Assembly: GCF_027922005.1 (NCBI RefSeq)
Contig: NZ_BSEV01000020.1
Span: 1-64,000, forward strand
Direction of reading: 5' to 3'
DNA length: 64,000 nt
Source: Streptosporangium carneum
GTDB lineage: Bacteria; Actinomycetota; Actinomycetes; Streptosporangiales; Streptosporangiaceae
A program made the position numbers and the translations under genes. The notes under the pieces are model-generated. The model was not told where the DNA came from, did no database searches, and worked only from the letters and a program-made list of their open reading frames with translations. This document shows positions 27,810 to 44,139 of the stretch, in pieces. Numbering within the stretch: position 1 is the first letter of the stretch; each line of letters begins with the position of its first letter.

Positions 27810-28274
27810 CTATGCGGGGGTCGCGAGCTTGCGGTGGTCCCAGGAGATCACTCGGGTCGGCTCCACCACGAAGGCGACCCGCTTGCGGCCGGTGTAGGCG
27901 ACATACTCTGCCAGGAGCTCCGGCGAGTCGGGCATTCCGGCCATCCGCTCGGCGACGTTCGTCCCGACCTCCAGGATGCCCTCCGAGTCGTCGACCAGCT
28001 TGGCGACGCCGTACACCAGAACCCCGCGCAGGTCGGAGTACTCGTCTCCGGCCTCGATCAGGCAGCTCACCCGGGAGTCCCGCTGGATGTTGAGTGTCTT
28101 CTGGGCCTTGCCGTAGGTCCAGAACGAAATCCTCCCCTCGGTCAGCCCGTAAAACATGGTCACCATATGCGGTGTTCCGTCCGGGTTGATAGTGCCGAGC
28201 TGGAGTTTCCGTGACTCACCGATGAAAGCGGTGATCTCATCCTCGGACATGGAGATGCGGGCGCGCTGGTTCAC
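27810..28274 (-). CDS. PPOX-class F420-dependent oxidoreductase family protein
   Basis: 154 residues from GTG at 28274. Split-barrel PPOX fold: ISMSEDEITAFIGESRKLQLGTINPDGTPHMVTMFY and SRVSCLIEAGDEYSDLRGVLVYG. The GTG has no ribosome site but lies 6-7 bases after a TACTTT -10 box (28280-28285 on the minus strand), which points to a leaderless message. First gene of the PPOX-ferredoxin-alcohol dehydrogenase operon. F420 binding is known for many but not all relatives. Confidence 0.85.
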   Translation of the reverse strand: MNQRARISMSEDEITAFIGESRKLQLGTINPDGTPHMVTMFYGLTEGRISFWTYGKAQKTLNIQRDSRVSCLIEAGDEYSDLRGVLVYGVAKLVDDSEGILEVGTNVAERMAGMPDSPELLAEYVAYTGRKRVAFVVEPTRVISWDHRKLATPA

Positions 28275-28351: not shown

Positions 28352-28999
28352 ATGAGCAACGCGACCATGCCCGCCGACCTGGTGCACGCCGCCAAACGAG
28401 CCAAGGGTTTCATGCCCCACGCCGAAGGGCTCGCACTCTTCGAGACGGCCGTCGAGTACGGCCCGCGCGGTCCGATCTGCGAGATCGGCACCTACTGCGG
28501 GAAGTCCGCCGTCTACCTCGGCGCGGGAGCCAGGCAGGCGGGCTCCGTGGTCCTCACCGTCGACCACCACCGGGGTTCCGAGGAGATCCAGCCGGGCTGG
28601 CCGCACCACGACCCCACCCTCATGGACCCCCGTTTCGGGAAGATGGACTCGCTGCCCACCTTCCGCAGCACGATCGCGGCCGCGGGCCTCGAGGAGGAGG
28701 TCATCGCGATCGTCGGCGCCTCCGAACGGGTCGCGGGGCTGTGGAACACCCCGCTGGCGATGCTCTTCATCGACGGCGGCCACTCGGAGGACCCGGTGAC
28801 CAAGGACTACGAGGGATGGGCGCCGCACGTCATCATGGGCGGGGCGCTGGTCTTCCACGACGTCTACCCCGACCCCGGGACGGGCGGGCAGGCGCCCTAC
28901 CGCGTCTACCTGCGCGTCCTGGCCTCCGGAGCGTTCCGGGAGGTCAGGCAGGAGGGATCCCTGCGGGTTCTGGAACGGGTCGGCCCCGGCATCGGCTGA
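28352..28999 (+). CDS. Class I SAM-dependent methyltransferase
   Basis: 215 residues. Rossmann-type fold with GPICEIGTYCGKSAVYLGAGA (SAM loop), the acidic VLTVDHHRGSEE and LAMLFIDGGHSEDPVTKDYEGW, typical of the Methyltransf_24/cephalosporin-hydroxylase-like group. Target unknown. Its 3' end overlaps the convergent UnbU-like gene by 94 bp. Ribosome site weak. Confidence 0.85.
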   Translation: MSNATMPADLVHAAKRAKGFMPHAEGLALFETAVEYGPRGPICEIGTYCGKSAVYLGAGARQAGSVVLTVDHHRGSEEIQPGWPHHDPTLMDPRFGKMDSLPTFRSTIAAAGLEEEVIAIVGASERVAGLWNTPLAMLFIDGGHSEDPVTKDYEGWAPHVIMGGALVFHDVYPDPGTGGQAPYRVYLRVLASGAFREVRQEGSLRVLERVGPGIG

Positions 29000-29946
29000 C
29001 CGGCCCGGCCGGTCCGGTCGCCGGGGCGCAGACGGCCCCGCACGGCCAGAAGCGCGCCTCGGCAGGCGCAGACGACGACCACGCACAGCGGCAGCGCGAA
29101 GTCGGCGTGAGAGCCCGCCAGCAGCCCGTAGACCGCCGCGGCCGTCAGGCCGAACACCACCTGGTGACGTGGCGCGAGCGGCGTCGTCCCCAGGTCGGGG
29201 AGCACGAAGCAGGTGTACAGGACGAAGAGCACGCCGGTCATCGGCAGCAGGGCGCCGATCGTCGGGACGTCACCCGGCGCGCCCCTGACGAGGCCCTGCA
29301 GGACGAACCCGCCCGCCCAGCCCAGGATCAGCGGCAGCCGCCCGCCCGGCCCCGCGTGCGCCCGCAGCCCCAGGGCCAGGACGGCCAGCGGCACGATCAC
29401 GTCGAACGGGCCGGAGACCCACGCGGTGAACTGGTGCGGCGGCACGACGCCGACCCACGGGAACAGCAGCGGGACGACGGCGACGCCGAGAGCCACCGGA
29501 TTCATGTAGGGCACGCCGGGCGCGTCGCCGCCGGTTCCCGAGCGCGACCCGTGGGACGCCCGCGGTGCCCGTGGACCCGTCCGGGCGGAAGGCCTGACCC
29601 GCAGGGCGTACCGGCCGCCGACCCCGATCAGGACGGCCAGCGCGACCGGCGTCAGGTGGGCCTGGCCGTACAGCAGCATCGCGCAGAGCAGGCCGTCGAC
29701 GTACGACGGCAGGAGGAAGTCGACCGTCCGGCCGAGCCGCCCGCCCAGGTAGCGGGGCGGGCGGCCGACCGCCCACGCGTCTGCGGTCTCCAGCGCGAGC
29801 TCGGCGGTCACCCCGGTGAGCGCCCCGACGAACGGCGCCAGGAAGGGCTGCTCGAAGCCCAGCAGACAGTGCCCGAGGACGGTCGTCCCGGTGACGGTGG
29901 CCGCCAGGCGGCGCAACGCCGTGGCGTGTCCGGGCGTGGCGGTCAC
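28906..29946 (-). CDS. UnbU-like integral membrane protein (enediyne-associated family)
   Basis: 346 residues from GTG at 29946. About eight hydrophobic segments and the RnfD/NqrB-like pattern of the enediyne-cluster UnbU family (LGRTVDFLLPSYVDGLLCAMLLY, RHQVVFGLTAAAVYG). A Ser/Arg-rich loop sits near residues 115-145 and the C-terminal ~35 residues are low-complexity and overlap the neighbouring methyltransferase. Start overlaps the UnbV stop by 4 bases, so it is translationally coupled. Biochemical role unknown even in enediyne producers. Confidence 0.82.
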   Translation of the reverse strand: MTATPGHATALRRLAATVTGTTVLGHCLLGFEQPFLAPFVGALTGVTAELALETADAWAVGRPPRYLGGRLGRTVDFLLPSYVDGLLCAMLLYGQAHLTPVALAVLIGVGGRYALRVRPSARTGPRAPRASHGSRSGTGGDAPGVPYMNPVALGVAVVPLLFPWVGVVPPHQFTAWVSGPFDVIVPLAVLALGLRAHAGPGGRLPLILGWAGGFVLQGLVRGAPGDVPTIGALLPMTGVLFVLYTCFVLPDLGTTPLAPRHQVVFGLTAAAVYGLLAGSHADFALPLCVVVVCACRGALLAVRGRLRPGDRTGRAGQPMPGPTRSRTRRDPSCLTSRNAPEARTRR

Positions 29947-32219
29947 GGCCGCTCCATCTCCGCCACGCCCCCGTCGGTCAGGAGAAGGTGGTGCCAGCCG
30001 GGCTCCAGGGAGATCGAGGCGGCGCGCGGGACGCCACAGGCGTCACGCCACGACAGCTCGACGGGGACGGGCCCGCCCTCCGCGTCGTCCCCGAGGCCGA
30101 ACAGCAGCTCGGGCGCGGAGACGCCGTTGTGCCCGCCGGAGGGGTAGAGCTGTCGTGCGAGCGTGACCCCGCCGGGCAGGCGCACCCTGGCGGCGGCCCC
30201 GACGGCGGGACGTGTCAGGGGCGGCCTGGCGGAAGCGGGGCCGGGCCTGACGAGGCGTCCCGTGGAGGAAGAGCCGGGGAACGCCGAGGAGCCGTCCGCG
30301 ACAGCGCCTGTGGCGGTGCTCGGGACGCCGCCTGTGACAGCGCCTGTGACAGCGCCCGTGGCGGTGCCTGGGGCGCCGTTTGTGACAGCACTCGTGGCGG
30401 TGCCTGGGACGCCGTCTGTGACAGCGCCCGTGGTGGTGCTTGTGGCGGTGCCCGTGATGCCGCCTGTGACGCCGCCGCACCGGCCCGCGGGCAGGCGCAG
30501 CCGCAGGCCGACGAAGGGGGCGGTGACGCCGTGGTTGCGGTACAGCGCGGACGCCGCCCACTGGTTGGCGACCGCGAAGTCCAGACGTCCGTCGTCGTCC
30601 ACGTCGCCGACGGCGAAGGCCCGGCTGACGGTGTCCGCGCCGACCCCGGCGGGGCCCGCCACGTCGACGTAACGCCCCTGCGCGTCCCTGGTGAGGAAGC
30701 CGTTCGCGTCGTGTCCCGCCAGGTCGTCACCCGCCCTGACGCCCGGCCACAGCGCCGGGTCCGAGACGGCCAGGTCGTTGGACATCGCCGCCTCCCGCAG
30801 CCGCGCCAGCCGGTCGGTCCCGCCCCTGACGAATCCGGTCGCGTACATGACCTCGTCGCCGCCGTCGTTGTCGAAGTCGGCGGCCTTGACGTCCCACGAC
30901 CAGCCGGCACGGCTCAGCCCCAACTCCTCGGCGTGGTCGTCGTACGGCGCCTCGCCGTCGTGGAGCCCGTCGGCGACGGGTTCGTCAGGGCGGGAGACGA
31001 AGGCGAGGCCGCGCTCGTACGCCCCGCCGGGCTCCGAGGTGTTGCCGACCAGGACGTCCGGCGCGCCGTCCGCGTTGAGGTCGGTGAAGGCGACCCCCCT
31101 GCCCCTGAAGGAGTCCTCGCCGAGGACGGCTGACCTGGGTGTGGTCGGGTAGCGGGTTCCCGACGCCTGCCGGAACCGGATCTCGCCGGGCTCCGACTCG
31201 TTGACCAGCAGCCTGTCGGGGCCGAAGTCGTTGACCACGTACAGCTCGGGACGCCCGTCGCCGTCCAGGTCCTGGACGCCCAGCGCGAGCGTCCAGCCCG
31301 TGCCGCCGACCTCGTCGAAGGCCTCCGCCGCCGCGTCGAACGCGCCGTCCCCCCTGCCGAGGTACAGCCGGTCGAGACCCCCGTCCCCGGCGTTCGACAG
31401 CGAACCGGGCATGACGGCGTCGCCGCGGTCGCGGCTGTCGTCCAGCACCCTGACGCCGTCGGGGAAGTAGTTCCCGAAGACCAGGTCGAGACGGCCGTCC
31501 CCGTCGAAGTCGCCGGCCGCCGCGGCGGCGGTGTTCCAGATCTCCGGCTTCCGGGTCAGGTCGCGGTGCCGGAAGGCCGCGCCGGAGGGCGGCGTCCCGG
31601 GAACCCGTGTGAACAGGGAGGGGGAGCGGCCCCAGTAGTAGACGACCAGGTCCTGCGCGCCGTCCTGGTCGAGATCGGCGGGCAGGCACCCCATCGGGGC
31701 CTCGTGCGGCCCGCGCCCGGGCGCGGCCAGTGTGAACGGCCGGTAGCTCCTGCGCGTGCCGGGCGCGGGGCTCACCGTCACCGTGTCGTGGCGCGGGTCG
31801 ACCAGGCAGACGTCGTCGGAGACGATCTCCCCGTCGACGTCGAACAGCGCGACCGCCGCGCCCGTCGCGGACACCCAGGCCCTGACGTTCTCGTAGCCGG
31901 GGGCGACAGGCCGCAGCCGCCGGTCGCCCGGCCTGTCCGGAGGGCCCAGAGGGGCCGCGACGAAGGAGAAACCCGTGGCCGTCCCCCTCGGCTCCCCGCC
32001 GGACGCCCCCACCTCCCCGCCGGGTGCCTCCGCCTTCCCGTCCGGCCTCCCGCCTGTTCCGTCACGCGCCTTCGCCCACGCCGTGGACGCCCCCGCCGCG
32101 TCGCCCGCAGGCCCGCCGTACGCGCCCGTCGGGGCCCCGGTCAGCGCCCATCCGGCGGTGACGGCGGCCAGGGCCAGGATTCCCGCCGTGTGCCTGCGAA
32201 CCCCCGGTGTGGATCCCAA
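29943..32219 (-). CDS. ASPIC/UnbV-type FG-GAP repeat protein (CRTAC1 family)
   Basis: 758 residues from TTG at 32219. N-terminal signal/anchor helix, then a beta-propeller of FG-GAP/VCBS repeats with calcium-type loops (DLDQDGAQDL, DFDGDGRLDL, DLDGDGRPEL, DLNADGAPDV, DFDNDGGDEV, DVDDDGRLDF) and a C-terminal ASPIC/UnbV domain (AAARVRLPGGVTL, YPSGGHNGVSAPELLFGLG). That last domain is split by a ~60-residue Gly/Thr/Val/Ala tract (residues ~580-640) coded by the repeats at 30309-30475. Likely extracytoplasmic. UnbV homologues are part of the enediyne warhead cassette and also of non-enediyne genomes. Confidence 0.88.
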   Translation of the reverse strand: MGSTPGVRRHTAGILALAAVTAGWALTGAPTGAYGGPAGDAAGASTAWAKARDGTGGRPDGKAEAPGGEVGASGGEPRGTATGFSFVAAPLGPPDRPGDRRLRPVAPGYENVRAWVSATGAAVALFDVDGEIVSDDVCLVDPRHDTVTVSPAPGTRRSYRPFTLAAPGRGPHEAPMGCLPADLDQDGAQDLVVYYWGRSPSLFTRVPGTPPSGAAFRHRDLTRKPEIWNTAAAAAGDFDGDGRLDLVFGNYFPDGVRVLDDSRDRGDAVMPGSLSNAGDGGLDRLYLGRGDGAFDAAAEAFDEVGGTGWTLALGVQDLDGDGRPELYVVNDFGPDRLLVNESEPGEIRFRQASGTRYPTTPRSAVLGEDSFRGRGVAFTDLNADGAPDVLVGNTSEPGGAYERGLAFVSRPDEPVADGLHDGEAPYDDHAEELGLSRAGWSWDVKAADFDNDGGDEVMYATGFVRGGTDRLARLREAAMSNDLAVSDPALWPGVRAGDDLAGHDANGFLTRDAQGRYVDVAGPAGVGADTVSRAFAVGDVDDDGRLDFAVANQWAASALYRNHGVTAPFVGLRLRLPAGRCGGVTGGITGTATSTTTGAVTDGVPGTATSAVTNGAPGTATGAVTGAVTGGVPSTATGAVADGSSAFPGSSSTGRLVRPGPASARPPLTRPAVGAAARVRLPGGVTLARQLYPSGGHNGVSAPELLFGLGDDAEGGPVPVELSWRDACGVPRAASISLEPGWHHLLLTDGGVAEMERP
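30309..30475. repeat. 36-bp tandem repeat inside the UnbV-like gene
   Basis: Imperfect copies of a 36-bp unit starting GTGACAGCGCCCGTGGCGG, with 12-bp partial units and a shortened last copy. It codes a 12-residue G/T/A/V repeat on the minus strand and interrupts the ASPIC/UnbV domain. In frame, so the length can change without breaking the gene. Confidence 0.8.
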
Positions 32220-32551
32220 TGCTCCCCCGAACTGTGGTCACGGGCTGTGTGGCATGAGCTGTGTGGCATGAGCTGTGCGGCATGGGCCGTGTGGCGTGAA
32301 CCGTGTCGTCATGGGCCGCCCGGCCGCAGGTCGACCTTGCTCCCGGTCCTGATCCCAGTCCCGCTTCGATCCCGGTCCCGACCCACGTCCCGGTCTCGGT
32401 CCCGACCCACCTCCCGATCCCGGTCCCGACCCACGTCCCGGTCTCGGTCCCGACCCACCTCCCGATCCCGGTCCCGACCCACCTCCCGATCCCGGTCCCG
32501 ACCCACGTCCCGGTCTCGGTCCCGATCCTGGCCGTGGTCCGTCGGCCGCGG
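32220..32551. other. UnbV-UnbL intergenic region (332 bp), mostly repeats
   Basis: The only long gap in the six-gene operon. It holds imperfect repeats of GTGTGGCATGAGCT (32250-32300) and seven 24-bp tandem units (32365-32532). No gene is visible; a minus-strand frame through it codes only Arg/Asp/Gly repeats. Confidence 0.6.
32365..32532. repeat. 24-bp minisatellite, seven units
   Basis: Seven contiguous 24-bp units alternating between two forms, CCCGATCCCGGTCCCGACCC+ACGT and CCCGGTCTCGGTCCCGACCC+ACCT. The first and last are slightly degenerate. There are no spacers, so it is not a CRISPR array. Located between co-directional genes where it may form mRNA structure. Confidence 0.88.
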
Positions 32552-34120
32552 TCACGAGTCGCGGTTGCGCCTCGCCCACGCCTTCCTGACCCCCGCCCGC
32601 CAGGCCTGGTAGTGGTCGCCGCTGTGCGCGTTGTGGCCGAGGGCGATGAGCGCCGTGTCCGTCCAGTGGCCCGCCTCCTCCACGTCGACCTCGCACAGCG
32701 CGGACGCGGCGACGGCCGTGTGCTCGGGCACGCTCCCCGAGATCAGGCGGGCGGCGCAGGCGAAGGCCGTGCCCTGCACGAGGTGGGCACGGAAGCCGTC
32801 CTCGGCCGCCGCCACGCTCAGCCGTTCCAGCTCGTGGGCGTCCGCGCCGCCGGCGTACCCCGCGGCCAGGCCCACGCCGCTCCACAGGTCGGCGCGGCGG
32901 CCGGGGGGGAACTCCGCGACGCGCAGGATGACGTCGTCGACGCCCGCGCACTCGTGGAACCAGAGCATCCGGCCGACCCCCTGGTCGAAGATCGCCCGTC
33001 GGGTCCGGTCGAGCAGCCCGGCGGTGCGCTGCCGTCCGACGGTCCTGTCCGAGGCGAAGAAGCCCTGGTGGAAGCCGAAGCCGTCGAAGGCCAGCCAGCG
33101 CAGCAGCGGATGCACCGAGCGGATGCCCCACATCGGGCGCATGCGCAGCCGGGCGTACGCCCAGCCGACGCCCAGGTGGATCATGTGCGGGTGGCGCATG
33201 CCCTGCCCGCTGAGCAGGCTCCTGAGCCGCCTGCCGCCGGTGACCGTGAGCACGTCGAGGGTCGCGCAGGCCATGCCCGCCCCCTCGTACGCGAAGCCGC
33301 GCAGCTCCTCCTCGAGGTCGTCGATCCGCTCGGCCTCACCCGCGACCACCGCGTTGTAACCCGCCAGGCACGCCTGTCCCGCGGCTTCGAGGCGGGGACG
33401 GGCCTGGCCGAGGCGGAAGCGCCGCACCCCGAACCCGGCCTGGCCGAGATCCTGCCACAGCAGGCCGGCCAGCCCGCGCGGCCTGGTCAGCGCCAGCTCC
33501 GCGGGAGCGCACCGGGGCCGGACGGCCGGCTCCGGCGCCTCGCCCGTGACCGGCCCGGACGCCCTCGTGGCCGCCTCGCCCGTGACCGGCCCGGACGCCC
33601 TCGTGGCCGCCTCGCCCGTGAGCGGCCTGGACGCCCTCGTGGCCGCCTCGGATGCCTCGCCCGTGAGCGGCCTGGACGCCCTGTTCGCGGTCGGTTCGGA
33701 CGTCTCGTCCGTGACCGGCCCGGACGCCCGGCCCATGACCGGTTCGGGAGTTCCGTCCGGGTGTCCGTTCTCCACGGCAGGCGTGACATGCCCCGAGGCG
33801 CTCCGCGAGGGCGTCCCGTCCGCGTTCCTGTTCTCCAGGGGGCGCGCGGAGAGGTCTCGGGAGACACGTCCTGAGACGTCCTGTGCCGGGTCCTCCCCCC
33901 GGGGCGTTCCGGGGGACTCTTCCGGGACTTTCTCCGAGGTCTTCTCCGGTCTTTTCTCCGGGCTCTTCTCCCGGTCCTCCTCGGGCGTCCGCCGAGGGGC
34001 GTCCCCGGGCGTTCGCGGGGGAGCCTTGACCGTGCCGGGGACGAGAGCTTCCTCCGCGACGGGCGCCGCCTCGAGGCGGTCGCTCCGAGCCACTCCTCCG
34101 TTGCCCTCCGCATCGCTCAC
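32552..34120 (-). CDS. DUF1702 (UnbL-type) enediyne-associated protein
   Basis: 522 residues from GTG at 34120. The first ~215 residues are low-complexity (Pro/Glu/Lys/Arg then 12-residue repeats such as ASGPVTGEAATR); the rest is the DUF1702 domain: AAGQACLAGYNAVVAGE, GFAYEGAGMACATLDVL, MIHLGVGWAYARL, LLRWLAFDGFGFHQGFF, GVGRMLWFHECAG, GRRADLWSGVGLAAGYAGG. DUF1702/UnbL is one of the conserved enediyne warhead-cassette families; no catalytic function is established. Here it is co-directional with UnbV and UnbU but no PKS is nearby. Confidence 0.88.
   Translation of the reverse strand: MSDAEGNGGVARSDRLEAAPVAEEALVPGTVKAPPRTPGDAPRRTPEEDREKSPEKRPEKTSEKVPEESPGTPRGEDPAQDVSGRVSRDLSARPLENRNADGTPSRSASGHVTPAVENGHPDGTPEPVMGRASGPVTDETSEPTANRASRPLTGEASEAATRASRPLTGEAATRASGPVTGEAATRASGPVTGEAPEPAVRPRCAPAELALTRPRGLAGLLWQDLGQAGFGVRRFRLGQARPRLEAAGQACLAGYNAVVAGEAERIDDLEEELRGFAYEGAGMACATLDVLTVTGGRRLRSLLSGQGMRHPHMIHLGVGWAYARLRMRPMWGIRSVHPLLRWLAFDGFGFHQGFFASDRTVGRQRTAGLLDRTRRAIFDQGVGRMLWFHECAGVDDVILRVAEFPPGRRADLWSGVGLAAGYAGGADAHELERLSVAAAEDGFRAHLVQGTAFACAARLISGSVPEHTAVAASALCEVDVEEAGHWTDTALIALGHNAHSGDHYQAWRAGVRKAWARRNRDS
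33537..33680. repeat. 36-bp tandem repeat inside the DUF1702 gene
   Basis: Three nearly identical 36-bp units beginning GCCTCGCCCGTGACCGGCCC (33537, 33573, 33609), then a fourth with a 9-bp insertion and more degenerate copies toward 33740. Codes the 12-residue repeat in the N-terminal tail of the DUF1702 protein. Confidence 0.85.
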
Positions 34121-34207
34121 AGGCCCGAACGTAGTGAGCCGTCCTCCGGCCTTTCAAGCACCTTCCTCCGGGTCCCTGGCAAAGAAACCGCAGGGACCCG
34201 CCGGGGC

Positions 34208-35305
34208 TCAGGCGCGTGAACCGGCGTGGCTGCAGCCGCAGGCCGCCGTCGGGCGGTCGGTGGCGTATCCGCCCGCGTCCCTGAAGACGCCCGCGCCCGG
34301 GGTGTGGCCGTCCAGCGCGTCGGCGGCGAGCACCACGGCGGCGGCGGTGTAGGCGGAGCGCTCGTGCGGGAAGTGCTTGCCGTTCACGAACTGCCAGCCG
34401 GTCCAGTAGGAGCCGTCCTCGTGCCTGAGATGCTGCATGTCGGCGAACAGCCGCAGCGCCCGTTCCCGGTCGCCGACGGCGTCGAGGGCGAGCACCAGCT
34501 CGCACGACTCGGCGCCCGTCACCCACGGCTGGTCGGAGACGCAGCGGATGCCGAGTCCAGGCTCGACGAAGGTGTCCCACTCCTCGGCGAGCCGCGCTCC
34601 GGCGGCGGGACCGCGCACCGCGCCGCCGAGGATCGGGTAGTACCAGTCCATCGAGAAACGGCTCTTGTCGGCGAACGCCTCGGGGTGGGCGACGAGCACG
34701 TGGCCGAGCTGGTCGGCCGCGAGCTCCCAGTCGGGCTGCGGATCGCCGAGGCGCTCGCCGAGCAGTACGCCGCAGCGCAGTCCCTGGTGGATGGAGGAGC
34801 AGCCGGTCAGCAGGGCGTACCCGGCGGGGGCGCCGTCCGCGGCGCGCTCCCAGAGGATCTCCCCCCGGGTGGTCTGCAGCTCGACCACGAAGTCCAGGGC
34901 GGACCTGACGACCGGCCACATCTCGCGGGCGAAGCCGGTGTCCCCGGTGACGAGCAGCTCGTGCCAGACGCCGACCGCGACGTAGGCGGCGTGGTTGGAC
35001 TCGCCGTTGTGCTCGACGGCCCGGCCGCCGACCAGTTTCATCGGCCATGCCCCGTCGGCCCGCTGGGTGCGGACCAGCCAGTCGTAGCCTCTGCGGACCG
35101 GCCCGGTGAGCCCCGCCACGCTCATGGCCATCAGGCACTCGACGTGGTTCCACGCGTCCACGTGCCCCTCGGGCCACGGGACGCCGCCGTCGGCTTCCTG
35201 AACGGCCGCGATGCTCTGGGCGGTCTGGACGACCTGCTCCCACCTCACCGGTCGCTCACCGCTCCTGTTTCGCCGCACGGGAGGTCTGGTTCCCGTGTTC
35301 CCCAT
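34208..35305 (-). CDS. Prenyltransferase/squalene-cyclase-fold protein
   Basis: 365 residues. Alpha-toroid repeats of the prenyltransferase/squalene oxidase family (IAAVQEADGGVPWPEGHVDAWNHVE, YDWLVRTQRADGAWP, LRHEDGSYWTGWQF). I see no DxDD cyclase motif, so catalysis as a triterpene cyclase is doubtful. C-terminus has a CGC motif. Operon member between the methyltransferase and DUF1702 genes; its substrate may be the same lipid or glycolipid the neighbours modify (inference). Confidence 0.82.
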   Translation of the reverse strand: MGNTGTRPPVRRNRSGERPVRWEQVVQTAQSIAAVQEADGGVPWPEGHVDAWNHVECLMAMSVAGLTGPVRRGYDWLVRTQRADGAWPMKLVGGRAVEHNGESNHAAYVAVGVWHELLVTGDTGFAREMWPVVRSALDFVVELQTTRGEILWERAADGAPAGYALLTGCSSIHQGLRCGVLLGERLGDPQPDWELAADQLGHVLVAHPEAFADKSRFSMDWYYPILGGAVRGPAAGARLAEEWDTFVEPGLGIRCVSDQPWVTGAESCELVLALDAVGDRERALRLFADMQHLRHEDGSYWTGWQFVNGKHFPHERSAYTAAAVVLAADALDGHTPGAGVFRDAGGYATDRPTAACGCSHAGSRA

Positions 35306-35389
35306 CCGCCACGCGCGAGGTCGGACGCCCGGCCGGAGAACGTTCTCCGGGAACGGGGCGCGCGTCGCGCCCCGCCGGTGTCGCGAAGG

Positions 35390-36103
35390 TCATGCGGGCT
35401 TCCGGACGTAGAGCACCACGCTCTTGCCGATGAGCGGGTTCAGCAGCGACTCGGCGATCCGGGTGACGGCGGGGCGCTTCATGATGTCCCAGACCAGCAA
35501 CTCGTGGTAGGCCTTGGCGACGGGGTGGTCGTCGTTGTTCACGCCGACCGCGCACTTGATCCACCAGTACGGCGCGTGCAGGCCGTGGGCGTGGTGGTGC
35601 GTGCCGACCTCCATGCCGACCGACTTCAGCTTCGCGCTCAGCTCGGCCAGCGTGTAGATGCGCACGTGCCCGCCGGGGGCGGTGTGGTAGTCCTCGTCCA
35701 GCGCCCAGCAGATCCGCTCGGGCAGGAAGCTCGGCACCGTGATCGCGGCCTGCCCGCCGGGCTTGAGCACCCGGAAGATCTCCCGCATCGCGGCCATGTC
35801 GTCCGGGATGTGCTCCAGCACCTCGGCGGCGATCACCCGGTCGAAGCTCGCGTCCTCGAACGGCATCCTCAGCGCGTCACCGGTCACGGTCTCGGCTGTG
35901 GCGCCCGCGGGCACCTCGCCCGCCTTGTCCATCGCGGTGAACATGTTCGCCACGCCTTCCAGCTCGCCGGCGTCCATGTCGAAGGCCACCACGTCGGCGC
36001 CCCGGCGCAGCACCTCGAACGCGTGCCGTCCACCGCCGCAGCCCAGGTCGAGAACTCGCGTGCCGGGGCCGACGGGCAGCCGGTCGAAGTCGACGGTCAG
36101 CAC
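35390..36103 (-). CDS. Class I SAM-dependent methyltransferase
   Basis: 237 residues from GTG at 36103 with AAGGAG upstream. Methyltransf_11-type: VLDLGCGGGRHAFEVLRRGADVVAFDMD, FDRVIAAEVLEHIPDDMAAMREIFRVLKPGG. Second gene of the operon led by the GT4 glycosyltransferase. Acceptor unknown. Confidence 0.9.
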   Translation of the reverse strand: MLTVDFDRLPVGPGTRVLDLGCGGGRHAFEVLRRGADVVAFDMDAGELEGVANMFTAMDKAGEVPAGATAETVTGDALRMPFEDASFDRVIAAEVLEHIPDDMAAMREIFRVLKPGGQAAITVPSFLPERICWALDEDYHTAPGGHVRIYTLAELSAKLKSVGMEVGTHHHAHGLHAPYWWIKCAVGVNNDDHPVAKAYHELLVWDIMKRPAVTRIAESLLNPLIGKSVVLYVRKPA

Positions 36104-36121
36104 TTGCCGCTCCTTGTCAGA

Positions 36122-36164
36122 GGTGATCGGTCACTTGGTCTGTCAGGGGTGATCGGTCACTTGG
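36122..36164. repeat. 17-bp direct repeat at the end of the glycosyltransferase gene
   Basis: GGTGATCGGTCACTTGG occurs at 36122-36138 and again at 36148-36164, the latter spanning the glycosyltransferase stop codon. A small duplication. Confidence 0.8.
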
Positions 36165-37401
36165 CGCCGCGTGCCGCGATGGCCTCGCGGTAGGCGTCCA
36201 CGGTCCGCTGGGCGACGACGCGCCAGGTGTAGCGCTCCATGACCCGGTCGTAGCCCCTCCTGCCGACGGCCGCCCGCTCCTCGGGCGAGTCGTGCAGGCG
36301 GCGCAGCGCCGAGGCCAGCTCCTCGGGGTCGCCGGGGGCGACCTGGACGGCGGCGTCGCCGACGACCTCGGGAAGCGCTCCGGTCCGCGACGCGACGAGC
36401 GGGGTGCCGCAGGCCATGTGCTCGACGGCGGGCAGCGAGAAACCCTCGTAGAGGGAGGGCACGACCGAGATCTCCGAGGTGGCGATCAGCTCGCCCAGCT
36501 CGGTGTCGGAGATGCCGTGCACGAACCTCACCCGGTTGTGCAGGGACAGCTCGGAGACCAGCTTCTCCGTGGGGCCGCCGGGGGTCGGCCTGCTGACCAC
36601 GGTCAGGTTCACGTCGCGTTCGGTGGCGAGTTTGGCGACCGCCCGCAGCAGCGTCGCGACGCCCTTCATCGGGGAGTCGGCGCTGGCGACGGCGACGATC
36701 GAGCCCGGCCGCTTGGGCAGCTCGGGACGGGGGTGGAAGTAGCGCGTGTCGACGCCGAGCGGGATGAGCCGCATGTTGGCCTGGGGCACGTTGAAGTCGC
36801 GGTGGATGTCGGCGAGGGAGGACTCGCTGACGGTGAGGATCGGGTTCAGCCTGGGCGCGACCTTGGCCTGCATCCTGACGAAGCCGTACCACCTTCTGAG
36901 CGAGAGCTTCTTGCGCGGCGGCGCGGCCTTCAGCTCGATCCGCCGGTCGACGCTGATCGGATGGTGGATGGTGCCGACCACGGGGAACAGCTTCTGGATG
37001 TCGAGCAGGCCGTAGCCGAGGGTCTGGTTGTCCTGCACCACGTCGAAGTCGCCGACGCGTTTGGCCAGCTCGCGGCGGGCGCGCAGGGTGAAGGTCAGCG
37101 GCTCGGGGAACCCGGCCGTCCACATGGTCGCGACTTCCAGCAGGTCGATCCAGTCGCGGTACTCGCTCAGCCGGGGAGTGCGGAAGGGGTCCTCGTCCCT
37201 GTACAGGTCCAGGCTGGGGATCTTGTTGAGGATGACGCCCTCGTCGAGCTCGGGGTACGGCTGGCCGGAGAAGACCTCGACGTGGTGTCCGAGGGCGACC
37301 AGCTCGCGGCTGAGATGGCGCAGGTAGACACCCTGACCACCGCAGGTCGGCTTGCTGCGGTAGGACAGCAGAGCCACCCGCAGTGCGTCCGCACCCGACA
37401 C
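36157..37401 (-). CDS. Glycosyltransferase family 4
   Basis: 414 residues. GT-B fold retaining glycosyltransferase: N-terminal GGQGVYLRHLSRELVALGHHVEVFSGQPYP (GGxxxH-type acceptor side), C-terminal IPLGVDTRYFHP and the nucleotide-sugar motif SEISVVPSLYEGFSLPAVEHMACGTPLVAS (EX7E). First gene of the six-gene minus-strand operon. It probably glycosylates a lipid or secondary metabolite; a GDP-mannose dehydratase gene stands divergently upstream and could provide a GDP-deoxyhexose donor (inference). Confidence 0.92.
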   Translation of the reverse strand: MSGADALRVALLSYRSKPTCGGQGVYLRHLSRELVALGHHVEVFSGQPYPELDEGVILNKIPSLDLYRDEDPFRTPRLSEYRDWIDLLEVATMWTAGFPEPLTFTLRARRELAKRVGDFDVVQDNQTLGYGLLDIQKLFPVVGTIHHPISVDRRIELKAAPPRKKLSLRRWYGFVRMQAKVAPRLNPILTVSESSLADIHRDFNVPQANMRLIPLGVDTRYFHPRPELPKRPGSIVAVASADSPMKGVATLLRAVAKLATERDVNLTVVSRPTPGGPTEKLVSELSLHNRVRFVHGISDTELGELIATSEISVVPSLYEGFSLPAVEHMACGTPLVASRTGALPEVVGDAAVQVAPGDPEELASALRRLHDSPEERAAVGRRGYDRVMERYTWRVVAQRTVDAYREAIAARGAK

Positions 37402-37689: not shown

Positions 37690-38718
37690 TTGGCCAGGCG
37701 CGCACTGATCACCGGTATCACCGGGCAGGACGGTTCCTACCTGGCCGAGTGCCTGCTCGAGCGGGGCTATGAGGTCTGGGGCCTGGTCAGGGGACAGGCC
37801 AACCCGCGCGTCTCCCGGGTCCGCAGGCTCCTGCAGGACGTCCGGCTCGTCCGCGGCGACCTCCTCGACCAGGGGTCGCTGATCTCCGCCGTCGAGAAGG
37901 TCCAGCCGGACGAGGTCTACAACCTGGGCGCCATCTCGTTCGTGCCGATGTCCTGGGAGCAGGCCGAGCTCACCGGCGAGGTCACCGGGATGGGCGTGCT
38001 GCGCATGCTGGAGGCCATCCGCGTCTGCTCCGGCATCTCCTCCTCGAGGACGGCGGCGGGCTCGGGGCAGATCAGGTTCTACCAGGCGTCCTCCTCCGAG
38101 ATGTTCGGCCAGGTCCGGGAGACGCCCCAGACCGAGGTGACCCCCTTCCACCCCCGCTCGCCGTACGGCGTGGCCAAGGCGTACGGGCACTTCCTCACTC
38201 AGAACTACCGGGAGTCCTACGGGATGTTCGCGGTCTCGGGAATCCTGTTCAACCACGAGTCGCCGCGCAGGGGCGCCGAGTTCGTCACCCGCAAGGTCTC
38301 CCTCGGCGTCGCCCGCGTCAAGCTCGGCCTGGCGGACGAGCTCCGGCTCGGCAACCTGGAGGCCCGCCGCGACTGGGGCTACGCGGGCGACTACGTGCGC
38401 GCGATGCACCTGATGCTCCAGGCCGAGCGTCCCGAGGACTACGTGATCGGCACGGGGCGCACGCACACGGTGCGCGAGCTCGTCGAGGCGGCCTTCGCCG
38501 CCGCGGGCCTCGACTGGGAGCGTCACGTGGTCACCGACCAGTCCCTGCACCGCCCCGCCGAGGTCGACCTGCTCTGCGCCGACCCGAAGAAGGCCCGTGT
38601 CCAGCTCGGCTGGGAGCCCTCCGTCCCGTTCGAGGAACTCGTCGCGATGATGGTCGAGTCCGACGTGAAACTGCTCTCCGAGGGCGGAGACCCCGAGCAG
38701 GACTCCTCCTGGCCCTGA
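37690..38718 (+). CDS. gmd: GDP-mannose 4,6-dehydratase
   Basis: 342 residues from TTG at 37690 with GAGGA upstream. Extended SDR: ALITGITGQDGSYLAECLLERGYEVWGLVR, YQASSSEMFGQV, catalytic SPYGVAKAYGHFLTQNYRESYG (YxxxK), GILFNHESPRRGAEFVTRKV, all characteristic of Gmd. It converts GDP-mannose to GDP-4-keto-6-deoxymannose, precursor of fucose, rhamnose and other deoxyhexoses. A residue stretch at 115-128 (SGISSSRTAAGSGQ) is a small insertion. Divergent from the glycosyltransferase operon. Confidence 0.95.
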   Translation: MARRALITGITGQDGSYLAECLLERGYEVWGLVRGQANPRVSRVRRLLQDVRLVRGDLLDQGSLISAVEKVQPDEVYNLGAISFVPMSWEQAELTGEVTGMGVLRMLEAIRVCSGISSSRTAAGSGQIRFYQASSSEMFGQVRETPQTEVTPFHPRSPYGVAKAYGHFLTQNYRESYGMFAVSGILFNHESPRRGAEFVTRKVSLGVARVKLGLADELRLGNLEARRDWGYAGDYVRAMHLMLQAERPEDYVIGTGRTHTVRELVEAAFAAAGLDWERHVVTDQSLHRPAEVDLLCADPKKARVQLGWEPSVPFEELVAMMVESDVKLLSEGGDPEQDSSWP

Positions 38719-40946: not shown

Positions 40947-43900
40947 TCAGGCGAAGACGTCCTGCTGGTAGCGGCCCTCCGCCTCCAGGCCGCGCAGCCA
41001 CTCCTCGCCGTCGCCCCCGGTCCTGTCCCGGTGGATCGTCGCCAGCGCCCGCCGTACGGCGGGCGCCATGCGCAGCCCGTCGCCGCAGACGTACACGTGG
41101 GCGCCCCGCTCGAGCAGCGTCCACAGTGTGTCCGCCTCGGCGGCGACCGCGTCCTGGACGAAGCGGAAGGGGTGACCGGGGACCGAGGAGAACGCCGTGT
41201 GCACGCGGGCGACCCCGTCCCTCTCCCAGGCTTCGAGTTCGGCCCGGTACAGCCAGTCGTGCTCGGGATGGCGGCAGCCGTAGAAGACCTCGGCGGGACC
41301 GGTCGCCCCGGTCAGGGCCCGCTCCTCGAGGAAGCCGCGCAGCGGGGCGAACCCGGTGCCGGGGCCGACGAGGATCACCGGGGTCGCCGGGTCGGCGGGC
41401 AGGCGGAACGGCGGGGTCGGAACCCTCACGTATCCATAGAAGACGTCGCCGGGCTCCAGTCCCGCCAGGTAGGCCGAGCACATGCCCCGGTACTCGCCGC
41501 CCCCCGACCAGGAGGGGCCCTCGACCAGGCCGACGGTGATCCTGACCCGCCCCGGGGTCGCCAGCGGCGAGGAGGAGACGGAGTAGTAGCGCGGCCTGAT
41601 CGGCCCCGCCATCTCCAGGAAGACCGGCAGGGGCAGGGTGATCGCGGGGAAGCGCTCCAGCAGCGTGAGCACCGAGACGCGCTTGGCGAGGATCTCGTCG
41701 GCGTAGGAGGCCTCCAGCTCGGCGAGCTGGCCCCTGGTCCACGGGCACTGCGTCTGCTCGGCCAGCGTCGACAGGTCCGAGCGGGTGGCCACCTCCTGGA
41801 GCTCGGCGAACTCGGTCAGCAGCAGCCCCGCCGTCACCGGGGTGTCGACGGGCAGATGGGTCGTTCCCCGGGCGCGCAGCCGTACGACCTGGTGGCGGGG
41901 GACGCGCAGGCAGCGCAGCGCCCACTCGACCAGCTCGGGGGCGTTCTTGGCGAAGACGGCCAGGTGGTCGCCCGCCTCGTAGGTCGTCCCCTCGGGCAGT
42001 TCCGCCACGATCGAGCGCACCCCGGGACGCGGCGCCTCAAGGGAGAAGTCCCACAGGCCCGCGGGGTCGCCGGTCAGCTCCTCGTTGGAGAGCACGGTCA
42101 GCGGGACGGCCTGCGGGGAGACGACCGCGGGGCGCACGTCCGCCTCGGTCAGGACGTCCATCTCGTAGCGGGGGCCGCTCTCGGCCTCCGCCGTGCCGTA
42201 CTCCTCGGCCAGCGCCGCCCAGAGAGTGGAGAGCCACGCCGAGACGTCGCCGTCGAAGTCGCCGTCGGCGTCCGCCTCGCCCCGGTCGACGAGCGGCACC
42301 GCTCCCGCCCCGGTGAGCTTGTCGAAGACCCGCCGGGGGAAGGCCTGGTAGGTGGGCCACTGGGTGTTGCCGCAGCCGAGCAGCGCGAACCGCACGCCGT
42401 CCATGGCGGGCAGGCCGGTGAGGGCGTCGAAGCGCTGGGCGTTGTCGGGGGCCTTGCCGTTGTAGGTGGAGGTGACCACCACGAGCAGCCCCTCGGTGGG
42501 CGGGTCGAGCTCGTCCAGGCTCGTCAGCGTGGTCGCGAACCCGGAACGCCCGGCGACCTCGGCCAGCCTCTCCGCGACGTCGGCCGCGGTGCCGAGGTTG
42601 GAGCCGTAGGCGACGGTGAGTTCGACGCCGGTGACGGTCACCTCGACCGGCTGCTCCTCCACGACCTCCGCCGTCGCCGCCGTGTTCCTCTCGTACGGCT
42701 TGCGCTCCCTGACCCGGACCGTGAAGTCGTCGGGCTTGAGGGTGAGCATCTGCTTGATCCGCATCCGGTAGGCGTCGGGGTCGGAGATCGCGAACCGCTG
42801 CAGCACGACGGCGAGGGCCAGCCGCGCCTCGGTCAGCGCGAACTGACGTCCGATGCAGGCCCGCTCGCCGTTGCCGAACGGCTTGTACGCGGCGGGGTGG
42901 TGGTCCGTCCTGTTCTCGGGGAGCCAGCGGTCGATGTCGAACTCCTCCGGCCTGTCCCACGCCTTCCGGTGCCGGTGCAGGGACGGCAGCAGGACGACGG
43001 CCGTCTGATCCTCGCGCACCGGGTAGCCGCCGATCGAGGTGTCGGCGAAGGCCTTGACGGAGAACGCCGGGATCGGGGACCAGATCCGCAGCGTCTCCTC
43101 CAGGATCCGCGGGATCACATCCAGCCTCATGACCGTGTCGTAGGTGGGGACGGTGTCCCCGGGCAGCAGCCGGTCGACCTCGGCGTAGGCCTGGGCGAGC
43201 ACGTGCGGGTTGCGCAGCAGGTTGTACAGGGCGAAGGACAGCAGCCCGCTGGTGGTCTCGTGCCCGGCGATGAGGAAGGTCAGCACCTGGTTGCGGATGT
43301 TCTCGTCGGAGAGCCGTTCGCCGCTGCGCGGGTCCGCGGCCTCCAGCATCAGGCCGAGCAGGTCCCTGGTGTCGTTCCCGCCCGAGGCCCTGCGCCGCCT
43401 GATGACGTCGTCGACCAGGTCCTGCATGACCAGGATGTCGGCCCGGTAGGCCTCCTCCTGCTTCCTCTTCAGCTTGGTGACCAGGGGGAACTGCCGGTTG
43501 CGGAGCATCGCCTCGGTCAGCGTGCGGCCCATCGCCTGCAGGAACGGGTGCAGCTCCGGCGAGTCGAAGGAGTTGAACCGGTAGTCGAACCCGGTGAGGG
43601 AGATCGTGTCGAGGGTGAGCCTGGTCATGTCGTCGGGCACGTTGACCTCGTCCGAGACCGCCCACTTGGCGACGAGCGCCTGCGCCACCTCCAGCATCTG
43701 CGGGAAGTACGCCTTCATGGACCGCTGGCTGAAGGCGGGCATCAGGATGCGGTGCGCGTGTCCCCAGACGGGCTCGTCGCGGCGGGCGGTGAACAGCCCG
43801 TCGCCGCCGAAGTCGCGGACGATGGACAGCGGCGGGTCGATGCCCTTGTAGAACCGCGTCTCGTCGCAGAGCTCGGCGACCAGGTCGGGGTCGTAGACGA

Positions 43901-44060
43901 ACAGGACCTTACGGCCGAGCAGTTCGAGCTGGTAGAGGCCGCTGTCGTACTCCGCGGCGAGCTTCTCGAAGAACGCGTTCGGCGAGTGCGCCGGGATCTG
44001 GAGCGTGTTGCCGAGCAGGGGCAGTCCCTGTGGAGCGGGGATGGAACGGGTTACCGACAT
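40947..44060 (-). CDS. Self-sufficient cytochrome P450 / NADPH-P450 reductase (CYP102 family)
   Basis: 1037 residues from ATG at 44060 with AGGAGG upstream; size and order match P450 BM3. P450 domain (1-460): I-helix AGHETTSGLLSFALYNLLRN and heme loop FGNGERACIGRQFAL, nearly identical to BM3. FMN domain (~485-625): AYGSNLGTAADVAERLAEVA. FAD/NADPH domain (~660-1037): RYYSVSSSPLATPGRVRITV, GPGTGFAPLRGFLEER, GDGLRMAPAVR. It should hydroxylate medium/long-chain fatty acids with NADPH. A divergent TetR gene and twin-dyad operator follow the arrangement of BM3/BM3R1. Confidence 0.96.
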   Translation of the reverse strand: MSVTRSIPAPQGLPLLGNTLQIPAHSPNAFFEKLAAEYDSGLYQLELLGRKVLFVYDPDLVAELCDETRFYKGIDPPLSIVRDFGGDGLFTARRDEPVWGHAHRILMPAFSQRSMKAYFPQMLEVAQALVAKWAVSDEVNVPDDMTRLTLDTISLTGFDYRFNSFDSPELHPFLQAMGRTLTEAMLRNRQFPLVTKLKRKQEEAYRADILVMQDLVDDVIRRRRASGGNDTRDLLGLMLEAADPRSGERLSDENIRNQVLTFLIAGHETTSGLLSFALYNLLRNPHVLAQAYAEVDRLLPGDTVPTYDTVMRLDVIPRILEETLRIWSPIPAFSVKAFADTSIGGYPVREDQTAVVLLPSLHRHRKAWDRPEEFDIDRWLPENRTDHHPAAYKPFGNGERACIGRQFALTEARLALAVVLQRFAISDPDAYRMRIKQMLTLKPDDFTVRVRERKPYERNTAATAEVVEEQPVEVTVTGVELTVAYGSNLGTAADVAERLAEVAGRSGFATTLTSLDELDPPTEGLLVVVTSTYNGKAPDNAQRFDALTGLPAMDGVRFALLGCGNTQWPTYQAFPRRVFDKLTGAGAVPLVDRGEADADGDFDGDVSAWLSTLWAALAEEYGTAEAESGPRYEMDVLTEADVRPAVVSPQAVPLTVLSNEELTGDPAGLWDFSLEAPRPGVRSIVAELPEGTTYEAGDHLAVFAKNAPELVEWALRCLRVPRHQVVRLRARGTTHLPVDTPVTAGLLLTEFAELQEVATRSDLSTLAEQTQCPWTRGQLAELEASYADEILAKRVSVLTLLERFPAITLPLPVFLEMAGPIRPRYYSVSSSPLATPGRVRITVGLVEGPSWSGGGEYRGMCSAYLAGLEPGDVFYGYVRVPTPPFRLPADPATPVILVGPGTGFAPLRGFLEERALTGATGPAEVFYGCRHPEHDWLYRAELEAWERDGVARVHTAFSSVPGHPFRFVQDAVAAEADTLWTLLERGAHVYVCGDGLRMAPAVRRALATIHRDRTGGDGEEWLRGLEAEGRYQQDVFA

Positions 44061-44102
44061 GGGGAACTCCTCCTTCGCTGACGATTTCCCGATTCCGTCA
44101 GC

Positions 44103-44139
44103 CATACACCGTATGACAGACGCTACCATACGGTGTATG
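44103..44139. promoter_or_regulatory. Twin-dyad TetR operator between CYP102 and tetR
   Basis: Two 13-mers, CATACACCGTATG (44103-44115) and CATACGGTGTATG (44127-44139), are perfect inverted copies of each other, and each is itself a CATAC-N3-GTATG dyad. Centre-to-centre 24 bp. The second copy includes the tetR start codon. Expected to control both divergent genes. Confidence 0.8.

What the first reader, a model, noticed from the sequence alone, without database searches (positions are those of the whole stretch)
28906..37401. Enediyne-type UnbL-UnbV-UnbU trio without a PKS, in an operon with GT4, methyltransferase and prenyltransferase-fold genes
DUF1702, ASPIC/UnbV and UnbU are conserved companions of the enediyne PKS, yet no pksE or thioesterase is in view. 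Instead they follow a glycosyltransferase, methyltransferase and alpha-toroid protein on one strand, UnbV and UnbU being translationally coupled. This argues that the trio has a membrane-linked function (for example lipid or redox-coupled modification or export) separate from enediyne chemistry, and may be an undescribed pathway.
Basis: partly seen in the sequence, partly recalled or inferred. Interest (0 to 1): 0.78.

Follow-up and report, generated by a model that had tools for sequence, protein, structure and literature searches.

The report
Enediyne gene remnants in sugar-polymer operon
Three genes normally used to build DNA-damaging enediyne antibiotics sit inside a bacterial operon that looks set to make a fat-binding methylated sugar polymer; they look like the leftovers of a lost antibiotic-type cassette, but one of them (DUF1702) has stayed with the sugar genes even where the rest is gone, which gives a handle on what that mysterious protein does.

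Summary
The genes are real, but the operon was misread. GT4, methyltransferase, the 'prenyltransferase-fold' protein and the convergent methyltransferase at 28352-28999 form a 3-O-methylmannose polysaccharide (MMP) cluster: three match solved structures taken as ManT, MmpH and MeT1 (E 6e-141, 6e-122, 4e-73). DUF1702-UnbV-UnbU lie between mmpH and meT1.

Relatives show why no PKS is present. Sinosporangium album has DUF1702-UnbV-UnbU-PKS-TE here. Of 16 Streptosporangium, 7 have PKS sequence here (broken in the five read) and 7, the window included, have none. UnbU runs into meT1 antisense, like a deletion scar. UnbU is decaying (50 of 84 conserved residues kept, genus pN/pS 0.78), UnbV less clearly; DUF1702 is held (66 of 71, 0.35). 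A complete enediyne cassette lies elsewhere in the genome.

DUF1702 stays beside mmpH in 53 of 54 Nonomuraea (35 of 36 without UnbU) and in the Planobispora and Planomonospora loci seen. So the trio is probably not an undescribed pathway but a collapsing cassette of which DUF1702 appears recruited to the MMP locus; its role is inferred, not shown. Side result: UnbU has the RnfD/NqrB fold.

The parts
36157..37401 (-). manT homologue, alpha-(1->4)-mannosyltransferase (GT4)
   Evidence: phmmer to PDB 7qsg E 6.3e-141; that entry is deposited as a D-inositol 3-phosphate glycosyltransferase, and I take it as M. hassiacum ManT (recalled link); Pfam Glycos_transf_1
35390..36103 (-). class I methyltransferase, probable pMeT3 (putative 3-O-methyltransferase)
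   Evidence: Methyltransf_11 E 1.5e-22; lies between manT and mmpH as the M. hassiacum and M. avium locus tags do in PMC9883506; identity by position, not by direct comparison
34208..35305 (-). mmpH homologue, MMP endomannosidase
   Evidence: phmmer to PDB 7qsj 'Methylmannose polysaccharide hydrolase (MmpH)' E 5.8e-122 over residues 23-344
32552..34120 (-). DUF1702 (UnbL) protein; conserved core about the last 315 residues, the N-terminal ~200 low-complexity
   Evidence: PF08012 E 1.4e-78 over residues 224-513; 66 of 71 conserved positions kept; all-alpha AlphaFold2 model of the core, pLDDT 92.7; tandem repeats in the N-terminal part
32220..32551 (.). 332-nt gap between DUF1702 and UnbV with a 24-bp x 6.6 tandem array (32367-32525)
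29943..32219 (-). UnbV: FG-GAP repeats plus ASPIC/UnbV domain, with a repeat-rich insert (30305-30476)
   Evidence: 117 of 136 conserved positions kept
28906..29946 (-). UnbU membrane protein, RnfD/NqrB fold, decaying; its last 31 residues are coded antisense to the 3' end of meT1
28352..28999 (+). meT1 homologue (1-O-methyltransferase of MMP), convergent
   Evidence: phmmer to PDB 6g7d E 4.2e-73 (link of that entry to MeT1 recalled); Methyltransf_24
37690..38718 (+). GDP-mannose 4,6-dehydratase-like gene, divergent neighbour found beside manT in most relatives where the locus is complete
   Evidence: PF16363 E 6.9e-125

Best explanation
The operon is an MMP biosynthesis cluster (manT-pmeT3-mmpH, with convergent meT1). 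In an ancestor within Streptosporangiaceae a compact enediyne-type PKS cassette (one DUF1702, UnbV, UnbU, PKS, TE) came to lie between mmpH and meT1. In this species PKS and TE are gone, UnbU (and perhaps UnbV) is decaying, and DUF1702 is kept under purifying selection because it has been recruited to the MMP locus. Shown by sequence: cluster identity, PKS-bearing cassettes at the same place in relatives, broken PKS genes in the genus, UnbU running into meT1, unequal decay, retention of DUF1702. Inferred: the order of events, and that DUF1702, an all-helical protein, binds or positions a long hydrophobic chain; in enediyne clusters this would be the PKS-derived polyene, and at the MMP locus the acyl chains that MMP binds, so that it acts as an accessory of MMP loading or turnover. 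I give the origin-and-decay part about 0.85, a real MMP-linked role of DUF1702 about 0.5, and the chain-handling mechanism about 0.2.
For: MMP enzymes; MmpH in 295 of 297 family genomes. PKS at the same place: active-site motifs present in Sinosporangium album and Rhizohabitans and nearly all in S. siamense; the five Streptosporangium PKS genes read (of seven loci with PKS sequence) lack the AT and ACP-region motifs, and two have KS Cys to Gly; Pfam finds no AT domain in the S. canum PKS but does in the Rhizohabitans one. Genus tally, 16 genomes: 7 trio only (window included), 7 with PKS sequence, 1 cut by a contig end (G009), 1 without DUF1702 there (G001). Scar. pN/pS in Streptosporangium: ManT .17, MeT .18, MeT1 .26, MmpH .30, DUF1702 .35-.36, UnbV .52, UnbU .78; UnbU controls .42.48 and .52 in three sets of cassettes. 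Saccharothrix control: trio 43 kb from its pksE keeps 70 of 71, 133 of 136 and 82 of 84 positions. DUF1702 lies 168-379 bp from mmpH in 53 of 54 Nonomuraea, 35 of 36 without UnbU. DUF1702 tree: MMP-linked copies form one clade, 99/96, the PKS-bearing Rhizohabitans copy at its base.
Against: MMP clusters occur without DUF1702: G001 and G070 have MmpH but no MMP-type copy, and 151 of 297 family genomes have no DUF1702 match at all. Nonomuraea copies keep only 48-55 of the 65-71 aligned conserved positions, so function may have shifted or constraint weakened. No cassette relic was found in Nonomuraea gaps (best E 0.16), so a past cassette there rests on the tree. pN/pS is crude and synonymous change is probably near its plateau in such GC-rich genes. 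UnbV's ratio in Streptosporangium (.52) is no higher than in other cassettes (.45.54.62), so its decay rests on lost conserved positions alone. UnbU is also poor in Streptosporangium that still have PKS sequence (56-65 of 78-84) and in S. siamense (60 of 81), which fits their broken or TE-less state but means that decay does not strictly follow PKS loss. No experiment links DUF1702 to MMP.
Confidence: 0.7

Rival explanations
1. One reading: DUF1702, UnbV and UnbU still work together as a membrane redox or export module that has nothing to do with enediyne chemistry.
For: All three ORFs are open in seven of 16 Streptosporangium without PKS sequence at this place; UnbV and UnbU overlap; UnbU has the RnfD/NqrB electron-transfer fold; G007, G008 and G015 keep the trio although no full-length pksE match was listed for them and each has only one DUF1702.
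Against: UnbU pN/pS .78 and 50 of 84 conserved positions; PF03116 not detected in the window copy but in 25 of 28 members; UnbU's end runs into meT1; UnbV and UnbU are absent from the MMP locus in the Planobispora, Planomonospora and Nonomuraea loci seen and from two Streptosporangium.
Confidence: 0.12
2. Hitch-hiking: DUF1702 too is a relic without function and only decays more slowly.
For: Some MMP loci lack it (G001, G070); Nonomuraea copies keep 48-55 of 65-71 conserved positions.
Against: Open and adjacent to mmpH in 53 of 54 Nonomuraea; pN/pS .35-.42, below that of DUF1702 in complete cassettes (.46-.51); kept in several lineages while the other cassette genes went.
Confidence: 0.15
3. 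The trio supplies the canonical enediyne PKS on contig C15 in trans.
For: A full pksE-TE cassette is in the same genome; in Saccharothrix sp. S26 a trio does lie 43 kb from a pksE-TE pair that has none beside it.
Against: The C15 cassette has its own two DUF1702, UnbV and UnbU; three congeners keep the trio with no full-length pksE match; the window DUF1702 belongs to another clade than the C15 copies; window UnbU is degenerate, the Saccharothrix one is not.
Confidence: 0.04
4. Opposite direction: DUF1702 was an MMP gene first and the enediyne cassette was assembled around it at this locus.
For: DUF1702 is the cassette gene most widely tied to mmpH; the base of the wider DUF1702 tree is unresolved.
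Against: MMP-linked copies occur only in Streptosporangiaceae among the 80 best loci, whereas cassette DUF1702 reaches Pseudonocardiaceae, Streptomycetaceae and Thiotrichaceae; PKS-bearing Rhizohabitans lies at the base of the MMP clade.
Confidence: 0.06

Closest known systems
MMP biosynthesis gene cluster of mycobacteria (meT1, mmpH, pmeT3, manT; PMC9883506, abstract and passages seen)
   Same: Homologues of all four genes; manT-pmeT3-mmpH then meT1 in the order of the M. hassiacum and M. avium locus tags (the M. smegmatis tags as printed swap mmpH and meT1).
   Different: Three enediyne-type genes stand between mmpH and meT1, meT1 is convergent, the host is Streptosporangium; the paper's main text does not contain the words Streptosporangium or Nonomuraea.
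Enediyne PKS gene cassette E3/E4/E5/E/E10 (PMC5181780, passages seen; the UnbL/UnbV/UnbU naming and its match to E3-E5 are recalled)
   Same: DUF1702, UnbV, UnbU in order on one strand, UnbV and UnbU overlapping; PKS-bearing relatives at the same locus.
   Different: pksE and TE absent; one DUF1702, not the two of the C15 cassette; UnbU degenerate; no tailoring genes seen.
RnfD/NqrB membrane subunits
   Different: No other Rnf/Nqr subunit in the operon; flavin site not tested; window copy lacks the PF03116 match.

Membership tests
MMP biosynthesis cluster | ManT | tested here: met
   PDB 7qsg E 6.3e-141; the link of that entry to ManT is recalled
MMP biosynthesis cluster | MmpH endomannosidase | tested here: met
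   PDB 7qsj E 5.8e-122
MMP biosynthesis cluster | MeT1 1-O-methyltransferase | tested here: met
   PDB 6g7d E 4.2e-73; the link of that entry to MeT1 is recalled
MMP biosynthesis cluster | pMeT3 | tested here: inconclusive
   Methyltransferase in the right position; mycobacterial sequence not at hand for direct comparison
MMP biosynthesis cluster | MMP made by the strain | not testable with these tools
   needs extraction and mass spectrometry
Enediyne PKS cassette | DUF1702 and UnbV genes | tested here: met
Enediyne PKS cassette | UnbU gene | tested here: met
   Alignment with UnbU of complete cassettes; degenerate at 34 of 84 conserved positions
Enediyne PKS cassette | pksE at the locus | tested here: not met
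   UnbU overlaps meT1; the only full-length pksE match listed for the genome is on C15
Enediyne PKS cassette | E10-type thioesterase at the locus | tested here: not met
   no TE match in the window
RnfD/NqrB family (UnbU) | Fold | tested here: met
RnfD/NqrB family (UnbU) | Covalent FMN threonine | not tested
   no residue-level structural alignment was made
RnfD/NqrB family (UnbU) | Partner Rnf/Nqr subunits | not tested
   not searched genome-wide; none is in the operon

The most novel reading that the evidence does not exclude
Ancestrally the MMP glycan and the cassette formed one system: in Sinosporangium album a complete cassette with no enediyne tailoring genes beside it sits between mmpH and meT1, so MMP, an acyl-chain-binding glycan, may have served as a soluble carrier for the cassette's long conjugated product, and DUF1702 is the adaptor between chain and glycan that stayed when the chain-making genes were lost.
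Probability: 0.15. Interest if true: 0.85.

Novelty: new variant of a known kind. Interest (0 to 1): 0.6.

Why it matters
DUF1702 (UnbL) is conserved in enediyne cassettes, yet I know of no assigned biochemical role. Its retention beside mmpH where the rest of the cassette is missing lets its role be tested apart from any toxic product, by simple gene removal and glycan or lipid profiling. The case also warns genome miners that DUF1702-UnbV-UnbU hits do not by themselves mean an enediyne producer, links MMP, a little-understood lipid-binding glycan, to a polyketide cassette (a search for 'methylmannose' with 'enediyne' found no paper), and gives UnbU a concrete fold (RnfD/NqrB) that suggests membrane electron transfer in the intact cassette.

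Tried and rejected
Literature: no paper in the held library had two of UnbV, UnbU, DUF1702; 'UnbL' plus 'enediyne' gave three unrelated papers; 'methylmannose' plus 'enediyne' gave none; 'diiodotetrayne' gave one unrelated paper; of enediyne papers one in the first ten listed names DUF1702, only in a figure legend. The library lacks most subscription journals, so this is not proof of absence.

Family-wide adjacency of DUF1702 to mmpH outside Nonomuraea: the match list was cut before the weaker MMP-type matches, so only Nonomuraea and the 80 loci (the best 80 of 394 confirmed) are counted.

Cassette relics in Nonomuraea DUF1702-meT1 gaps of 60 nt or more: none (best E 0.16).

Other trios without pksE beside them: Saccharothrix sp. 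S26 (L094) has UbiB-like gene-DUF1702-UnbV-UnbU with a pksE-TE pair 43 kb away on the same contig, so it is a split cluster, not a PKS-free trio. Thiotrichaceae loci: pksE-like matches on other contigs, full-length or nearly so in two genomes, partial in the other two, so not used as proof of a PKS-free role.

Rows dropped: my name filter missed the PKS of L038 and the L049 remnant was not included, so five of seven Streptosporangium PKS loci were read (L065 and L067 repeat L036 and L041). Trees used subsets: 70 rows; 27 taxa, without L036, L040 and L044, where manT-mmpH lie 14-19 kb away. Alignment A2 used 43 of the 80 loci plus the window, A3 27 of the 80 plus the window. Nonomuraea pN/pS used 38 loci (37 for two genes).
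Full report
What is there. The six minus-strand genes lie at the stated places. DUF1702 and UnbV are confirmed by Pfam; UnbV and UnbU overlap by GTGA. The upstream genes are not lipid or prenyl genes. The 'alpha-toroid' protein is MmpH, the methylmannose polysaccharide endomannosidase (PDB 7qsj, E 5.8e-122); the GT4 matches 7qsg (E 6.3e-141), which I take to be ManT; the convergent methyltransferase downstream matches 6g7d (E 4.2e-73), which I take to be MeT1. PMC9883506 (passages seen) gives consecutive M. hassiacum locus tags for ManT, pMeT3, MmpH, MeT1 (M. avium alike; the M. smegmatis tags as printed swap MmpH and MeT1). The window has that order with DUF1702-UnbV-UnbU inserted between mmpH and meT1.

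Where the PKS went. The window lies in a Streptosporangium (genus inferred: named Streptosporangium records have the contig lengths of its congeners). Its genome also holds a complete canonical cassette on contig C15, DUF1702-DUF1702-UnbV-UnbU-PksE-TE; its PksE is the only full-length match listed for the genome. Of 15 congeners, 14 have the same DUF1702 type at the MMP or meT1 locus and G001 does not. Counting the window, 7 of 16 have the trio without PKS sequence, 7 have PKS sequence before meT1 (two of these without UnbV and UnbU, one without UnbV), G009 is cut by its contig end, G001 has nothing there. In G002, G004 and G011 mmpH lies about 14-19 kb from DUF1702. The PKS of Streptosporangium is broken: in the five genes read the AT and ACP-region motifs are missing, the KS cysteine is glycine in two, and other KS or KR motifs are lost in several (the assignment of motifs to active sites is recalled). 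PKS genes with these motifs stand at this locus in Sinosporangium album and Rhizohabitans arisaemae, both with TE and a MOSC-domain gene; S. siamense has the PKS without TE. In Rhizohabitans the cassette is separated from the other MMP genes by about 4 kb of sugar genes. In Sinosporangium album the cassette with its MOSC gene and one Tat-signal protein are all that stands between mmpH and meT1, with no tailoring genes.

The scar. The window's UnbU overlaps meT1 by 94 nt on the other strand. Its residues from about 308 on match antisense meT1 3' ends at loci that have no UnbU, and the same kind of tail is seen in S. saharense, S. violaceochromogenes and S. amethystogenes. The simplest reading is that the native end of UnbU went with the PKS.

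Unequal decay. Nei-Gojobori pN/pS among Streptosporangium: ManT .17, MeT .18, GMD .17, MeT1 .26, MmpH .30, DUF1702 .35-.36, UnbV .52, UnbU .78. Controls, in the order C15-like cassettes (7), stand-alone enediyne-type loci (15), PKS-bearing MMP loci (3): DUF1702 .51.47.46; UnbV .62.45.54; UnbU .48.42.52. Of positions at least 95% conserved in 22 cassettes of the first two sets, the window keeps 66 of 71 in DUF1702, 117 of 136 in UnbV, 50 of 84 in UnbU; Rhizohabitans and Sinosporangium album keep 66 and 65 of 71, 132 and 133 of 136, 79 of 84 and 78 of 83; S. siamense 63 of 71, 113 of 134, 60 of 81. Other Streptosporangium keep 46-65 of 76-84 in UnbU, those with PKS sequence included. A trio of Saccharothrix that lies 43 kb from its pksE keeps 70 of 71, 133 of 136 and 82 of 84 (the window's UnbU scores 51 of 84 in that re-run), so mere distance from the PKS does not cause decay. 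UnbV is the unclear case: its ratio is not raised, its conserved positions are reduced. Tandem arrays are present in the DUF1702 N-terminus, the DUF1702-UnbV gap and UnbV.

DUF1702 alone. Of the 80 best loci for the MMP-type DUF1702: 45 have DUF1702 alone after mmpH (39 Nonomuraea, one of them cut by its contig end; 4 Planobispora; 2 Planomonospora), 7 are Streptosporangium, 3 carry a PKS-bearing cassette at or near the MMP genes, 16 are enediyne-type loci without MMP genes in view, 5 other actinobacterial, 4 Thiotrichaceae. In 54 Nonomuraea genomes MmpH is found in 54, MMP-type DUF1702 in 53, in all of these 168-379 bp from mmpH, and UnbU in 18, by the coordinates never near mmpH. Of the 36 without UnbU, 35 have DUF1702. 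Across the family, MmpH is in 295 of 297 and any DUF1702 in 146 of 297, so DUF1702 is not required for an MMP cluster.

Descent. In the DUF1702 tree (70 rows) MMP-linked copies, including those of the three PKS-bearing loci, form one clade (99/96), with Rhizohabitans at its base and the Nonomuraea, Streptosporangium-Planobispora-Planomonospora and Sinosporangium copies within. Its placing among other enediyne DUF1702 is unresolved. A tree of four neighbouring genes (27 taxa; several supports between 42 and 90) puts loci without PKS sequence in three or four separate lineages (window group, S. amethystogenes group, Planobispora-Planomonospora, Nonomuraea), so PKS loss with DUF1702 retention probably happened several times.

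Mechanism. In intact cassettes UnbU probably moves electrons across the membrane and UnbV may be an exported propeller; both would act on the PKS product (inference; published work on a polyene-to-diiodotetrayne step is recalled, not read). An ABC1/UbiB-like kinase gene stands just before DUF1702 in ten of the 16 enediyne-type loci, which would fit a quinone or membrane link, but no such gene is at the MMP loci searched. MMP-type polysaccharides bind fatty acyl chains (titles of Machida and Bloch 1973 and of Kiho and Ballou 1988 seen in the reference list of PMC9883506). The common denominator of DUF1702's two settings is a long hydrophobic chain, hence my guess that it handles such chains; this is unproven.

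Noticed in passing
G000:C15:123000-134700 (L034, L035): A complete canonical enediyne cassette with two DUF1702 genes, followed by a cytochrome P450 gene (PF00067), elsewhere in the same genome.
   Followed up: partly
L094 8859-9998 and the matching place in L086, L087, L088, L091, L095, L098, L101, L103, L114: An ABC1/UbiB-like kinase gene (PF03109 in L094) directly precedes DUF1702 in ten of 16 enediyne-type loci of this DUF1702 clade; in L132, L056 and L142 a relative lies further off.
   Followed up: partly
L094 9995-13760; L159: Saccharothrix sp. S26 has the trio about 43 kb from its pksE-TE pair on the same contig: a split enediyne-type cluster with well-conserved trio.
   Followed up: partly
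L139 3600-8258; L140 9911-10843; L143 5115-6047; L137 6270-7202: Thiotrichaceae (mostly Parabeggiatoa) genomes carry DUF1702 alone or, in L139, a DUF1702-UnbV-UnbU trio before a TauE-like gene, with no pksE alongside within the short contigs; pksE-like matches are on other contigs.
   Followed up: partly
L087: Streptomyces sp. CB03234, the tiancimycin producer of PMC5181780, carries a DUF1702 of the same wider clade in a PKS-bearing locus; whether this is the tiancimycin cluster was not checked.
   Followed up: no
L077 19836-20432, L075 19812-20456, L151 16274-17248: A MOSC-domain gene and a Tat-signal protein without other Pfam match accompany the cassette at the MMP locus in Sinosporangium album and Rhizohabitans, and in no other locus searched (many loci end before that point).
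   Followed up: partly
window 27810-28274: A pyridoxamine 5'-phosphate oxidase-like gene stays next to meT1 in most of the relatives' loci; a small ferredoxin and a zinc alcohol dehydrogenase gene follow it in the window.
   Followed up: no
window 40947-44105: Self-sufficient cytochrome P450 fused to flavodoxin, FAD- and NAD-binding domains.
   Followed up: no
L075 6057-9471: In Rhizohabitans a small sugar cassette (two epimerase/dehydratases, a GT2) stands between the MMP genes and the PKS cassette.
   Followed up: no
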